Shown here in pieces: positions 16,351 through 20,845 of a DNA stretch of 64,000 nt (position 1 is the first letter of the stretch; each line of letters begins with the position of its first letter). This DNA comes from Schaalia sp. ORNL0103. GTDB taxonomy: Bacteria; Actinomycetota; Actinomycetes; Actinomycetales; Actinomycetaceae. The position numbers and the translations under genes were made by a program. The notes under the pieces were generated by a model. That model worked only from the letters and a program-made list of their open reading frames with translations. It did not search any database and was not told the DNA's origin. The stretch covers positions 1,116,001 through 1,180,000 of the forward strand of contig NZ_JAHXSA010000001.1 in NCBI RefSeq assembly GCF_019429565.1. The letters run 5' to 3'.

Positions 16351-17028
16351 CTACTCGCTCTCGCGCAGATGGCCGTCCTCCATGACGTAGCTGCGGTCCG
16401 CGAAGCGCTGCGCCTCGGCCTCGTGCGAGACGACGAGGACGGCTGCTCCCCGGTCGGCGGCGTCGCGCAGGAGGGTGAGGGCAGCGGTCGCGTTCGCGCT
16501 ATCGAGGCCGGCGGTTGGCTCGTCTGCGACGACGATCGCGGGGTCCATGAGGAGGGCGCGCGCAATCGCCATGCGCCGCAGCTCACCGCCCGACAGCTCG
16601 GTGGGCGCAGCGTCGGCGAGGTCGCCCAAGCCCACGGAGGCCAGCAGCTCGCGGGCACGGTCCGCGGGCGCCTCGTCCTTGGTGTAGAGGATCGAGGGAA
16701 GCAAGACGTTGTCGAGGACTGTCAGGGCTCGCAGGGCCGTGTGCCCCTGGGGGATGAGGCCGATACGTTCATTGCGCAGGCGCGAGAGCTCCTCGTCGCG
16801 CAGCGAATACAGGTCTGTGCCGTCCAGTCGTACGTGTCCTGCGGTCGGCGTGAGGATGCCGGCGAGCATGTTCGCCAGGGTGCTCTTGCCGCTGCCGGAG
16901 TGCCCCGAGACGACGGTCAGTTGGCGCTCCTCCAGGCCGATATCCAGCGGGTGGACGGCCGTGAAGAGGCGCTTTCCCCCGCGGGCTCGGGCGAATTCTT
17001 TCGTGAGTCCCGTTGCCTCGATGATCAT
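16351..17028 (-). CDS. ABC transporter ATP-binding protein of the DUF4418-linked operon
   Basis: A 225-residue ATPase of the LolD/MacB type, the energising subunit for FtsX-like permeases. Walker A is GHSGSGKSTL, the signature LSGGELRRMAIARAL, Walker B IVVADEPTAGLD and the H-loop VVSHE. The Q-loop position reads IPQGHTALRALTV. Its start codon is 1 nt from the stop of the permease gene at 17030, the last junction in a tightly packed five-gene operon. The substrate is unknown; MacB/Lol-type systems usually move lipoproteins, peptides or signals across the envelope rather than importing solutes. Confidence 0.9.
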   Translation of the reverse strand: MIIEATGLTKEFARARGGKRLFTAVHPLDIGLEERQLTVVSGHSGSGKSTLANMLAGILTPTAGHVRLDGTDLYSLRDEELSRLRNERIGLIPQGHTALRALTVLDNVLLPSILYTKDEAPADRARELLASVGLGDLADAAPTELSGGELRRMAIARALLMDPAIVVADEPTAGLDSANATAALTLLRDAADRGAAVLVVSHEAEAQRFADRSYVMEDGHLRESE

Positions 17029-17029
17029 G

Positions 17030-18238
17030 TCATTCCCCTTCCTTGAGGGCCAGGCTGGCGTCCATTGTCGTCACGTACCGTAGCGCTATCCACGAGGAGA
17101 CGAGGGCGACGAGGCCCACCGACGCGAGCGCTCCCAGCGCGAGCAGCGCCAGCGTGGGCAGCGACGGGACGAGGAATCCCCCTCCCAGGCTTTGGCGTAC
17201 GAGGCCGGAGAAGGACACGAGGAGGACACCGGAGACGACGATGCCGCCCACGCCACCGAGCGCGTTGACCGCGAGGGCCTCGCGAATGATAATGCGAGAG
17301 ATCAGCCGACGGTGTGCTCCGGCGGCGATGAGGGTTGCGAACTCTCTCCTGCGCTCGACGATCATCAGGACGAACATGAGGGTGATCATAAGCAGGCCGA
17401 CTCCCCACGCGACGGCGATGAGGGTGGTGACCGTACGGGAGGTCGCCTCCAGTGATTGCGCGATGCCACTGACAAGCTTTGTCGACGTGGCCACCGAGAC
17501 GCCGGGGACCTGCTCGCGGATCTGCGCGGCCACGGCCTCGGCGTCGTATCCGGGTGCCACCTTGACCATGACCGAGGAGATGATGCGGTCGGTTTCGAGC
17601 GTCGAGTACTTGTTGAGTCCCTTGCGCAGCGACGAGTCGATGACCTTCTTCGCGGTCTCGAAGTTCATGTAGACCGCGTTGTCGAGGGTCGATCCGGTCG
17701 GGTCGAATTGGCCGACAACCCGAAGGGTGTTGTCAAAGAGCTGGAAGTTCTCCGGGTCGTTGGCGAGCACGTTGGCGCCGACGATCACCTCATTCTCCCC
17801 CAGCTGCGTCTGCCCGACGGCATCGTTCATCCACGGCTGGATCGTGAAGTCGGTGGCCGGGTCGTAGGCGATCACCTGGTAGCGGCCCGAGCAGCAGCTC
17901 GCCCTCGCCGAGGCGAGGAAGAGCTGGGAGGAGGCGGCCTCGACGCCGTCGACGGCTGCGACTGCCTCGCGCGTGGACGCGTCCATGTAGAAGTACGACG
18001 GTTCGGCGCTCACGAGGAAGGTCTGCGCGTCGAAGTCGGTGTCGGCCTCGTCGGGCGTCACCATGATGTCGGCTCCGAGGCGCGACTGGGTCGTGCGCAG
18101 GCCGTATTCGATGCCTTGGACGACCAGCGTTCCGCCGAAGATCGTCATCGTCATGAGCATGGAGAAGAAGACCAGGGCCCCCGTCCGCACGGGGTAGCCG
18201 CGCAGATTCATCCATGGAAGTCGCGACAGCGACAGCAT
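17030..18238 (-). CDS. FtsX/MacB-type permease with an extracytoplasmic Cys-Cys pair
   Basis: A 402-residue membrane protein with one N-terminal membrane segment (~20-42), a large outside MacB-like domain (~45-270) and three C-terminal segments (~275-300, ~325-350, ~365-390), the FtsX-like topology. The only two cysteines are adjacent (C115-C116, in ASCCSGRYQV), in the outside domain just before YDPATDFTIQPW. That PxTDFxxxPW motif and RLGAD are shared with the permease at 18266, so the two are paralogues likely to form a heterodimer. AAGGAGG precedes the start. Confidence 0.85.
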   Translation of the reverse strand: MLSLSRLPWMNLRGYPVRTGALVFFSMLMTMTIFGGTLVVQGIEYGLRTTQSRLGADIMVTPDEADTDFDAQTFLVSAEPSYFYMDASTREAVAAVDGVEAASSQLFLASARASCCSGRYQVIAYDPATDFTIQPWMNDAVGQTQLGENEVIVGANVLANDPENFQLFDNTLRVVGQFDPTGSTLDNAVYMNFETAKKVIDSSLRKGLNKYSTLETDRIISSVMVKVAPGYDAEAVAAQIREQVPGVSVATSTKLVSGIAQSLEATSRTVTTLIAVAWGVGLLMITLMFVLMIVERRREFATLIAAGAHRRLISRIIIREALAVNALGGVGGIVVSGVLLVSFSGLVRQSLGGGFLVPSLPTLALLALGALASVGLVALVSSWIALRYVTTMDASLALKEGE

Positions 18239-18265
18239 TGCGTCATTCCTCCTTGACCGTTGTCC

Positions 18266-19456
18266 CTACACCAGGACAGATTTATTCCCCGTGGCCGCAC
18301 GGCTGACCCGAGCGATCGCGAGACGCGTTCCGGCGACACCGACGCAGGTGACGGCGACTATTGACAGGCCCGCGAGGGGCAGCGACGTCGCGGGGGCGGC
18401 AAGGGCCTCGACGAGGCTCCCGTCCCCCACGAGTGGCACGGTGAGGGCTGCGAGGCAGACTCCCACGAGCGCTCCGGCCACGTGAAGCAGCGCTGATTCG
18501 CTCAGCATGACACGGCTCATGATGGAGCGCGATGCCCCAATGGAGCGCCACACGGCCAGTTCCTGCAGCCGTTCGTTCATGAGGCTCACCTGCACGATGA
18601 TGAGGGCGCCCAGTAGAACGAGCCAGGTCGCTCCCAGGACCCCGATTGCGACCCCGCGGTGCGCGCGGATGCCCGATGCGGCCCCGACGAGCGCCTCGGT
18701 GGCGTGCACCGCACTGACCTTGCGCACGTAGAGGTTGATCCAGTTGGTCACGCTCTCGATGGCGTCGCTGTCCGAGGCGCGTACGAGCGCGGCAGAGTAG
18801 TCCGTACGCGGGTCGAGGGAAGCGTCGATGTCCTGCCCCGCCGCGCGCGCGTCCGCCATCATGTCCGTCAGGGTGTCCATGGAAACGAAGACTGCGTCAT
18901 CGAGTTCCGAGCCGGTGGCGAGGAGGTGAGCGCCGATCGGGCGTTCTCGCCCAAAGACGGAGAGGCTCTGTCCGTCCGCGCCGGGCACGGCACTACCGAC
19001 AAGAACCGAGCCGCGCGGCAGCGACGTCCCGTCCCCCTCGGCAATCCAAGGCGAGAGCGCGAAATCCGTCTCGGGTTCGAAACCGACAATCCACCGGGTG
19101 GACCCATCGGCAAGCGTCTCGGACACATAGAGCTGATAGGACACCGCGGCGATGTCCTCGTTGGACGACATGCGCGCCAGGGCCGAGCGCGGCTGGTGAC
19201 AGCCCACGGGGGTCCCGAGCATAAGGAGGCGCTTCTTCTCCACCTGGTTCAAGCAGGTCGTCGGGTACACGACAAGGTCGGCGCCGAGCCTGCGCTCAGC
19301 GAGGGTGAGCTCCGCCCGCATCGCACCCACGAGGATCAATCCGCCGAACACGCAGGCTGCCTGTGCGAGTGCAAGCACAGCGATGATGAGGGAACGGACG
19401 GGATGCGCGCGGATGGTCAGGAGGGGAACGCGGCGCAGGGACAGCGCGTTACTCAT
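18266..19456 (-). CDS. Second FtsX/MacB-type permease, paralogue of the 17030 gene
   Basis: A 396-residue protein with the same topology: N-terminal membrane segment ~22-45, outside domain ~50-245, and three C-terminal segments. It shares RLGADLVVYP and EPETDFALSPW with the neighbouring permease. Its outside cysteines are placed differently: C68 (YPTTCLN) and C86 (TPVGCHQP) flank a basic stretch; C35 is in the membrane segment. Paired cysteines in both subunits suggest a thiol, disulfide or metal in the outside domains (inference). Its ATG overlaps the preceding stop codon (ATGA). Confidence 0.85.
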   Translation of the reverse strand: MSNALSLRRVPLLTIRAHPVRSLIIAVLALAQAACVFGGLILVGAMRAELTLAERRLGADLVVYPTTCLNQVEKKRLLMLGTPVGCHQPRSALARMSSNEDIAAVSYQLYVSETLADGSTRWIVGFEPETDFALSPWIAEGDGTSLPRGSVLVGSAVPGADGQSLSVFGRERPIGAHLLATGSELDDAVFVSMDTLTDMMADARAAGQDIDASLDPRTDYSAALVRASDSDAIESVTNWINLYVRKVSAVHATEALVGAASGIRAHRGVAIGVLGATWLVLLGALIIVQVSLMNERLQELAVWRSIGASRSIMSRVMLSESALLHVAGALVGVCLAALTVPLVGDGSLVEALAAPATSLPLAGLSIVAVTCVGVAGTRLAIARVSRAATGNKSVLV

Positions 19457-20334
19457 CGGCTCCCCTCACCGATCCCTTCGACGTTGATCCACAGCGCGGG
19501 ACGCACCCCGTACTGCAGGTCGACGTTCGCTCCACTGAGCGAGGGCACGCCCGTCGCGTCGACGAATTGCGTCGCGAAACCGTATGTTCCGGGAGAGCGC
19601 AGCCACCAGTCTGCCGTGCCGTCCTCGGAGACGCTCAGGGGTCCCGCGGCCGCGTGAACGCTGGCGGGCGCCGCTCCGATGTCACTGCGCGCGGCGGGCG
19701 TGTTCAGGTAGATGACGCTCTCGGTCTCACTGAGCGCAAAAACCCGGTCGTCAGTCGCGGCTCCGCCGCTCGCGCCGGTGATCGACTGATCCGCGTTCTC
19801 GTTGTGCACCGTCTCGATGAGCCCTCGCTGAACGGGGGTGAACGCGCCCTCGTAGAAGTTGCCGTTCATCCACGCGCGCAGGTCAGAGTTCTCCCACGTG
19901 ACCTCCTCGAAGGGCACGTGGTGGTACTGGCGCGCCTCGAGAACGTCTGCGCTCAGGAGCAGAAGCTGGCCGTCGATCTTGTCGAGGACAATCCACGTGA
20001 TCGGCTCCGGACCGTTGCTTGTATTTCCGTCCTGCTCGTAGGAGCCAAAGGACACGGTGTCGCCCTTGGATACCGAGCGGTACGGCAGCCCGGGATCGGC
20101 TTCGACGAGGGCCTGCGCGCGCTGCGCCGCGTCGCTGTACCCGCCGAGCGCATGGAAGAGCTCGTACGCCCCCTGGGCGTCCCCGGCCTCGTCCAGGGCG
20201 ACGGCCTCGCGATAGCGCACCGCGTTGCGCACGACGATCGCGAGAACGGCGACGAGGGATAGCACGAGGAGAACCGCGCCGATGCGCACGGTTTTCGAAC
20301 GTCCTAGGGCTCTCACGCCGCCATTGTCTCCCAT
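19453..20334 (-). CDS. Membrane-anchored DUF6273 domain protein
   Basis: A protein of about 293 residues with one membrane anchor near the N-terminus (IGAVLLVLSLVAVLAIVV). A short helical repeat (DAQGAYELFHALGGYSDAA) and a C-terminal DUF6273-like domain follow, with TWIVLDKIDGQLLLLSADVL, WENSDLRAWMNGNFYEGAF, WLRSPG and GVRPALWI. The domain should lie outside the membrane. DUF6273 is common in gut and oral Gram-positives and has no assigned function; it resembles lectin-like FGE/sulfatase-modifying folds (weak inference). The start is uncertain between ATG 20334 and GTG 20316. It is the second gene of the operon. Confidence 0.7.
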   Translation of the reverse strand: MGDNGGVRALGRSKTVRIGAVLLVLSLVAVLAIVVRNAVRYREAVALDEAGDAQGAYELFHALGGYSDAAQRAQALVEADPGLPYRSVSKGDTVSFGSYEQDGNTSNGPEPITWIVLDKIDGQLLLLSADVLEARQYHHVPFEEVTWENSDLRAWMNGNFYEGAFTPVQRGLIETVHNENADQSITGASGGAATDDRVFALSETESVIYLNTPAARSDIGAAPASVHAAAGPLSVSEDGTADWWLRSPGTYGFATQFVDATGVPSLSGANVDLQYGVRPALWINVEGIGEGSR

Positions 20335-20347
20335 CCGGGGCGATACG

Positions 20348-20773
20348 TCAGGCAGAGGGCCTCGTGTCCTTCTTCCAGGACGCCACCAGCGCCCCAATAC
20401 CGCTACCGGCGACCAGGACGCTCATAATGCGCACGAAGGGCTGGAAGACGGTGTGGCAGCGCATCGTCTTCATCGCGCACAGCGGGCAGATCCCGCCGGG
20501 AATGAAGAACACAACGACGCTGGCGATGACCGCGAGCGCGAGCAGGGCCAGGCGCGCGGGCTTGTTCTTGACGAGGGAGGAGGCGCCGTACAGCGCGATG
20601 AGGCCGACGGCGCTGCCGGCCACCATGTTCTGGCACTGGTGGCAGTGCATCCACGAGCCGTCTGCCCGTTGCTCGCACGCCGAAAAGACGGTCACACCTC
20701 CGGCGAGCAGCAGGGCGCTGAGGGCGGCGGGGACCAGCGGAATGATGACGTCCTTCTTTGCCACGGTATCCAT
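20348..20773 (-). CDS. DUF4418 family four-helix membrane protein
   Basis: A 141-residue membrane protein with four hydrophobic segments (~10-31, ~50-68, ~75-93, ~110-132). It carries a duplicated M-x-C-H motif: WMHCHQC at residues 41-47 before helix 2 and CPLCAMKTMRCH at 96-107 before helix 4, plus C33. This cysteine/histidine layout matches DUF4418, a family of unknown function found beside ABC permeases in anaerobic Firmicutes and Actinobacteria (from memory). Metal, heme or quinone binding are possibilities, not shown. First gene of the five-gene operon. GTG 20764 has better Shine-Dalgarno spacing than ATG 20773. Confidence 0.8.
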   Translation of the reverse strand: MDTVAKKDVIIPLVPAALSALLLAGGVTVFSACEQRADGSWMHCHQCQNMVAGSAVGLIALYGASSLVKNKPARLALLALAVIASVVVFFIPGGICPLCAMKTMRCHTVFQPFVRIMSVLVAGSGIGALVASWKKDTRPSA

Positions 20774-20807
20774 TCCTTGAAGACAACGATCAGTGTTGAT
20801 GAGCTTT

Positions 20808-20845
20808 ACCTAAGTATATTAAGCCTACCTTTCAACACCCGTCAA
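20808..20845 (-). promoter_or_regulatory. AT-rich promoter with metal-box-like half sites before the DUF4418 operon
   Basis: On the minus strand, TTGACG (20840-20845) is separated by 18 nt from TAATAT (20816-20821), overlapping TATACT (20813-20818). TTAGGT (20808-20813) and AGGTAGGC (20823-20830) resemble half sites of DtxR/IdeR boxes, but no full palindrome forms. Metal control is only a hypothesis. Confidence 0.45.

What the first reader, a model, noticed from the sequence alone, without database searches (positions are those of the whole stretch)
16351..20845. Five-gene cysteine-rich DUF4418/DUF6273/dual-permease ABC operon of unknown substrate
Genes DUF4418 - DUF6273 - permease - permease - ATPase are packed with overlaps or gaps of 1-27 bp under one AT-rich promoter. 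DUF4418 carries two M-x-C-H motifs and a CPLC pair before its membrane helices. Permease 17030 has only two cysteines, adjacent, in its outside domain; permease 18266 has two outside cysteines in another position. The permeases share RLGAD and PxTDFxxxPW-type motifs, so they are paralogues and likely form a heterodimer. The pattern suggests a system handling a thiol, metal or redox cofactor at the membrane. No function is assigned to DUF4418 or DUF6273 as far as I know.
Basis: partly seen in the sequence, partly recalled or inferred. Interest (0 to 1): 0.8.

Follow-up and report, generated by a model that had tools for sequence, protein, structure and literature searches.

The report
Thiol-armed helper of iron uptake
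A small membrane machine with strictly conserved sulfur-bearing residues on its outer side appears to be switched on when iron is scarce and to assist a known bacterial iron-import system; how it works is still untested.

Summary
The operon is real: DUF4418 - DUF6273 - FtsX permease B - MacB-type permease A - ATPase, minus strand. The key cysteines hold: four Cys of DUF4418 in 47-49 of 49 distinct sequences, the Cys-Cys pair of permease A in 42 and 43 of 43. The permease-B cysteines do not (12 of 18 each). The wider-spread unit is three genes, DUF4418 - permease A - ATPase; 17 of 21 carriers have a second permease. Substrate class can be narrowed: the two best DtxR-type iron boxes of the 64-kb window lie in this promoter. 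Among 98 genomes (own included), DUF4418 and permease A occur in the same 21, and all 21 carry FtrD of the FTR1-P19 (Fet/Sif) iron system. In several genomes the module lies beside or inside that cluster. Best reading: an iron-starvation-controlled accessory of Fet/Sif using ATP to drive thiol or thiophilic-metal chemistry outside the membrane. Against: the FtrD link is not significant in Bacillota, and relatives of the module lie beside nitrous-oxide reductase, which makes Cu(I) handling a live but unproven alternative.

The parts
20348..20773 (-). DUF4418: four-helix membrane protein, a duplicated hairpin; C33, M42-x-C44, C99, M104-x-C106 in the two outward loops (start may be GTG at 20764)
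   Evidence: Pfam 67.5 bits; conservation; halves align to each other at 97.8%; AlphaFold2 mean pLDDT 78.8; topology read by eye
19453..20334 (-). DUF6273 with one N-terminal membrane anchor; probably lectin-like; no Cys
   Evidence: Pfam 103.2 bits; hydropathy and Cys count; fold of other DUF6273 domains from PMC10743442 passages
18266..19456 (-). permease B, FtsX family, paralogue of permease A; C68 and C86 not family-wide
   Evidence: Pfam FtsX 28.6 bits; 12 of 18
17030..18238 (-). permease A, MacB_PCD + FtsX, with vicinal pair C115-C116 in the outside domain
   Evidence: Pfam; C115 42 of 43, C116 43 of 43
16351..17028 (-). ABC ATPase of the LolD/FtsE/MacB kind
   Evidence: Pfam 108.9 bits; best NCBIfam hit LolD 172 bits, below its cut-off 307.75
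20795..20813 (-). DtxR/IdeR-type iron box, best in the window
   Evidence: 15.4 bits with a matrix of 31 published sites whose own scores run 7.5-21.6; 13 of 19 consensus matches, shuffle p 0.020
20814..20832 (-). second, weaker DtxR-type site (a one-base shift scores nearly the same)
   Evidence: 11.4 bits, next best in the window; best site elsewhere in the window 9.7 bits

Best explanation
An accessory module of the FTR1-P19-FtrD (Fet/Sif) iron uptake system, repressed by a DtxR/IdeR-type regulator when iron is plentiful. Shown by computation: gene order, cysteine conservation, iron boxes, nested co-occurrence, physical linkage. Inferred: the ATPase and MacB-type permeases (two different ones here, one in three-gene relatives) turn ATP-driven motion into movement of the permease's outside domain rather than pumping a solute; there the Cys-Cys pair exchanges thiol/disulfide electrons or a thiophilic metal ion with the four outward Cys and two Met of DUF4418, keeping the extracytosolic iron-handling proteins (P19, FtrD) reduced or metal-loaded. 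DUF6273 would add a binding domain in the Schaalia lineage. The confidence is for the iron-accessory role with outside thiol/metal chemistry of either sort; the role alone I would put near 0.8.
For: Iron boxes: the two best sites of the window are in this promoter; in 18 of 21 Actinomycetaceae-range promoters the best site beats every control window of the same locus. Co-occurrence: 21 of 21 DUF4418 genomes carry FtrD against 6 of 77 others; by genus 4 of 4 within 8 of 54, p about 2e-4. Permease A is in the same 21. Linkage to FTR1/P19/FtrD/Sif genes in L038, L039, L040, L043, L045, L055, L061, L078. Invariant outward Cys. Related Fet genes are needed under iron limitation, and reducing power from its ABC part was proposed (PMC10783030 passages); sifABCDE is induced by iron chelation (PMC5449479 passages).
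Against: Weaker shuffle test: only 13 of 21 promoters at p<=0.05; many strains are near-identical, and AT-matched control windows were few in several loci. The own genome's FTR1 cluster is on another contig and its promoter has no clear box with this matrix. In Bacillota FtrD is in 7 of 17 DUF4418 genomes against 3 of 20, p 0.14. Other copies lie in NosZ and methyltransferase clusters. No experiment touches DUF4418. The permease-A model is poor (54.8) and no complex could be modelled.
Confidence: 0.6

Rival explanations
1. Cu(I)-handing machine: DUF4418 collects Cu(I) with its Cys/Met set and passes it through the permease Cys pair to extracytosolic copper proteins, P19 in iron-system loci and nitrous-oxide reductase in others. 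It would work like NosDFY (recalled) but from unrelated parts. This is a special case of the best explanation, so the odds overlap.
For: C...MxC repeats and a Cys pair are Cu(I)-type ligands (general knowledge); module copies near NosZ (927 bits for the L116 protein; homologues in L109 and L111 by clustering) and a CuA-motif frame in L120; [quoted passage not shown]
Against: Promoters here look iron-controlled, not copper-controlled. No binding data. Methyltransferase and nitrogenase-like contexts (L123, L119) are not copper systems.
Confidence: 0.22
2. A true transporter that exports a reductant, small thiol or iron-mobilising compound, or imports an iron chelate, with DUF4418 as a redox-sensing subunit.
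For: ABC architecture; iron regulation; the C. jejuni authors also discuss an unknown chelator or substrate (PMC6083913, PMC10783030 passages).
Against: MacB/LolC/FtsX-type permeases have four helices and act by outside-domain movement rather than a channel (general knowledge; fold by Pfam); no solute-binding protein in the operon.
Confidence: 0.15
3. An ordinary MacB/Lol-like envelope transporter with no special link to iron.
For: Best NCBIfam hits are LolD, ADOP, FtsX, DevC and similar.
Against: All of those hits are below cut-off; iron boxes, co-occurrence and linkage; the Cys pair is absent from the 4 SifB and 3 SifC examined.
Confidence: 0.07

Closest known systems
Campylobacter jejuni FetMP-FetABCDEF (P19 cluster; PMC6083913, PMC10783030 passages)
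   Same: Iron-regulated; two paralogous FtsX-type permeases plus ATPase next to a Cys-bearing membrane protein; works with FTR1 (FetM) and P19 (FetP)
   Different: FetA is an eight-helix protein with DUF2318; DUF4418 is a duplicated hairpin with no detectable kinship to the FtrD membrane part (1.5%); no thioredoxins in this operon; permease Cys pair is new here; the module coexists with FtrD in the same 21 genomes
Bifidobacterium breve sifABCDE (PMC5449479 passages)
   Same: Actinobacterial iron-induced membrane protein - permease - permease - ATPase operon
   Different: SifA and SifE (FMN-binding) have no counterpart in the window operon; the Sif-like genes of this organism are a separate cluster (L077)
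MacB / LolCDE / FtsEX type ABC systems
   Same: MacB_PCD + FtsX permease and LolD-like ATPase
   Different: Vicinal Cys pair, DUF4418 partner, no membrane-fusion protein gene in the operon
NosDFY copper assembly machine (recalled; no paper on its structure was held)
   Same: ABC machine thought to act outside the membrane on metal delivery
   Different: No NosD-like protein among the five; different permease and partner

Membership tests
DUF4418 (PF14387) | Pfam score over the curated cut-off | tested here: met
   67.5 against 27 bits
DUF6273 (PF19789) | Pfam score over the curated cut-off | tested here: met
   103.2 against 23.5 bits
Fet/Sif core cluster | FtrD-like (PF10080/DUF2318) protein in the operon | tested here: not met
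   None of the five proteins matches it; the genome has one elsewhere, C3:5916-6218; DUF4418 profile against FtrD membrane part 1.5%
Fet/Sif core cluster | two FtsX-type permeases and an ATPase | tested here: met
   but the closest kinship of permease A is to permease B rather than to SifB/SifC
Fet/Sif core cluster | adjacent to FTR1 and P19 | tested here: inconclusive
   Adjacent in L039, L040, L043, L045, L055 and L061, not in the window's own genome, where they are on another contig
MacB/FtsX-type ABC systems | MacB_PCD and FtsX domains with a LolD/MacB-like ATPase | tested here: met
   Permease A has both; permease B has FtsX only; ATPase LolD-like but below cut-off
MacB/FtsX-type ABC systems | ATP-driven movement of the outside domain without transport through the membrane | not testable with these tools
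   needs biochemistry or structures
NosDFY | NosD periplasmic protein with NosF and NosY | tested here: not met
   no such domain among the five proteins
DtxR/IdeR regulon | 19-bp box TTAGGTTAG(G/C)CTAACCTAA in the promoter | tested here: met
   15.4 bits at 20795-20813, best of the window; consensus from PMC1382209 passages. Binding and regulation themselves not tested

The most novel reading that the evidence does not exclude
A previously undescribed ATP-driven Cu(I) (or other thiophilic-metal) handing machine on the outer face of the membrane: DUF4418's duplicated C...MxC hairpins load a vicinal Cys pair in a MacB-type permease, which serves different client proteins in different lineages, P19 for iron import and nitrous-oxide reductase for N2O respiration.
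Probability: 0.22. Interest if true: 0.82.

Novelty: new variant of a known kind. Interest (0 to 1): 0.6.

Why it matters
In the Fet iron system the function and substrate of the ABC part are called unclear by its own investigators (PMC10783030 passages). Here a second ABC module with conserved outward cysteines is nested in genomes with the same kind of system. That gives concrete residues (C115-C116; C33, C44, C99, C106) with which to test whether such machines move electrons, thiols or metal outside the cell. DUF4418 occurs in one paper of the held library, as a line of an expression table, so a functional assignment looks new within that library only.
Full report
WHAT IS THERE. On the minus strand lie DUF4418 (20348-20773), DUF6273 (19453-20334), an FtsX permease (18266-19456, here permease B), a MacB_PCD/FtsX permease (17030-18238, permease A) and an ABC ATPase (16351-17028), with spacings +13, -4, +27, +1. 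The closest named record for DUF4418 is Schaalia odontolytica (L057; 98%, 99%). A dapA-like gene upstream and a ribonuclease-J-like gene downstream are recognised by eye from the translations.

CONSERVATION. I took DUF4418 from 50 stretches of relatives and distant genomes (L115 repeats L062; the window itself not counted): 51 copies, 49 distinct. The four Cys are in 47, 48, 49 and 48 of 49, the two Met of the MxC motifs in 46 and 44, the His after the first MxC in 34. The two halves of the family align to each other (97.8%, E 8.7e-13), Cys on Cys and MxC on MxC, so the protein looks like a duplicated membrane hairpin; no unrelated hairpins were tested as control. The AlphaFold2 model (nine sequences) has four long helices, mean pLDDT 78.8, pTM 0.74. 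By the positive-inside rule, applied by eye, both Cys loops face outward. Permease A homologues (over 80 bits) were found in 43 of the 50 stretches, though not always next to DUF4418 (5-7 kb away in L079 and L080); with the window they make 43 distinct sequences, C115 in 42 and C116 in 43. L061, L082, L083, L119, L121, L122 and L124 gave none. Four SifB and three SifC permeases have no Cys pair. Permease B keeps C68 and C86 in 12 of 18 each (one of the 18 is the shortened frame of L122).

MODULE SHAPE. Among 98 genomes (own included), permease A at E<=1e-10 occurs in 21, the same 21 that hold DUF4418 over the cut-off. Seventeen have a second match (permease B); four (G003, G044, G056, G077) have one. 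The three-gene form is also seen in Clostridia stretches L060, L062, L063. So DUF4418 - permease A - ATPase is the wider-spread core, and DUF6273 plus permease B look like an addition, seen here in this genus and in one Bacillota-range stretch (L122). DUF4418 is rare elsewhere: over the cut-off in 10 of 396 genomes of the phylum and 14 of 398 of a Clostridia-containing phylum.

IRON, REGULATION. A matrix from 31 C. glutamicum DtxR sites (PMC1382209 passages) gives its two best sites of the whole window in this promoter: 15.4 bits at 20795 and 11.4 at 20814; the best elsewhere is 9.7. In 18 of 21 promoters (window plus 20 loci of the order) the best site exceeds every 200-bp control window of its own locus; L037, L043 and L045 do not. 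The higher-scoring L045 sites listed lie just before its own FTR1 gene. AT-matched control windows were few in several loci (none in L046 and L051). A plainer test, consensus match against dinucleotide shuffles, reaches p<=0.05 in 13 of 21, and in none of the 31 copies from the other stretches. Several of the 21 are near-identical strains, so the counts are not independent. The FTR1 cluster of the own genome shows no such box in front of FTR1; its best site (11.1 bits) lies before FtrD. The genome has three matches to the DtxR-type family, a family also matched in 13 of 14 control genomes.

IRON, CO-OCCURRENCE. FtrD (PF10080) is in 27 of the 98 genomes: all 21 with DUF4418 and six without it; no genome has DUF4418 over the cut-off alone. 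By genus, 4 of 4 DUF4418 genera fall among 8 FtrD genera of 54, p about 2e-4. Beyond the relatives the link weakens: in other Actinomycetota FtrD is in 5 of 9 DUF4418 genomes and 0 of 11 others searched; in the Bacillota set in 7 of 17 against 3 of 20, p 0.14. The comparison genomes were not drawn at random.

IRON, LINKAGE. L038 has FtrD, SifB, SifC, SifD, FMN-binding and ApbE genes followed by the module on the same strand. In L039 the module is followed by FTR1-P19-FtrD-SifB. In L040, L043, L045 and L055 FTR1 follows the ATPase. In L061 DUF4418 is followed by FTR1-P19-FtrD. In L078 the module lies between two Sif-like permeases and a Sif-like ATPase with an FtrD gene. The own genome has FTR1, P19, FtrD, two permeases, ATPase, an FMN-binding protein (20.3 against 22 bits) and ApbE on contig C3, unlinked.

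OTHER CONTEXTS. In L116 the module lies near a Sec-dependent nitrous-oxide reductase (927 bits); L109 and L111 hold homologues of it by clustering, and L120 a CuA-motif frame. L123 holds a corrinoid methyltransferase and nitrogenase-like frames; L086, L110, L113 and L117 hold SsuA-type binding proteins by clustering, of which the L113 one was scanned (64.8 against 163.5 bits). In a permease-A tree (context labels by hand, some by genome rather than by locus) Schaalia and the L060-L063 Clostridia group together (0.988); L036-L039 (0.999) join them only weakly (0.450). The NosZ-context loci and most of those with SsuA-type or methyltransferase neighbours fall in another group (1.000). L078, L081, L113, L108, L114 and the L079/L080/L084 set fall outside both. 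Both groups keep the Cys pair.

MECHANISM. Shown: operon, conservation, iron boxes, nested co-occurrence in this order, linkage. Inferred: iron-repressed expression, an outside-face complex, ATP-driven motion, and thiol or thiophilic-metal exchange between DUF4418 and permease A. For the related Fet system, loss of fetA, fetB, fetC or fetD impairs growth under iron limitation; the function of its ABC part is called unclear, and a source of reducing power is proposed (PMC10783030 passages). That a copper site is required in P19 and FetP is known to me here only from a title in its reference list. Because loci with different client pathways keep the same cysteines, a shared outer-face chemistry seems likelier than a pathway-specific substrate. 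Copper would fit P19 and NosZ; electrons would fit too. The data do not decide.

LITERATURE. DUF4418: one paper, whose table lists a B. longum DUF4418 gene (-2.24) and the next-numbered ABC permease gene (-2.12) (PMC7701253 passage). DUF6273: five papers; in one, models of other DUF6273 domains resemble C-type lectins (PMC10743442 passages). PMC6083913, PMC10783030, PMC5449479, PMC8238504, PMC10418091 and PMC1382209 were seen as passages; none was read whole. NosDFY, SAO and the action of MacB-type systems are recalled.

CHANGES ON CHECKING. The tree claim was corrected (0.988 does not cover L036-L039), 'three best sites' became two, the weaker shuffle count and the own-cluster promoter were added.

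Noticed in passing
L122:8369-10898: A Bacillota-range stretch with DUF4418, DUF6273, one shortened permease-B-like frame whose last residues resemble the end of permease A, and the ATPase; either a real loss or an assembly collapse.
   Followed up: partly
L056 and L058: Records titled Xylanimonas cellulosilytica and Sanguibacter keddieii carry DUF4418 96-97% identical to the window's, so the titles are probably wrong.
   Followed up: no
L077:2350-11235 (own genome, contig C3): A complete Sif/Fet-like cluster: FTR1, P19, FtrD, two permeases, ATPase, FMN-binding protein, ApbE.
   Followed up: yes
window 20764: A GTG nine bases after AAGGA is a more likely DUF4418 start than the ATG at 20773, which directly abuts AAGGA (by eye).
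   Followed up: partly
L060, L062, L063, L115: Frames that look by eye like a fumarate-reductase/succinate-dehydrogenase flavoprotein and iron-sulfur pair lie upstream of the module in these Clostridia stretches (L062 and L115 are one contig).
   Followed up: no
L109, L111, L116: Rieske-, cytochrome b- and cytochrome c-like frames (by eye) lie between the DUF4418 module and the NosZ-family gene.
   Followed up: no
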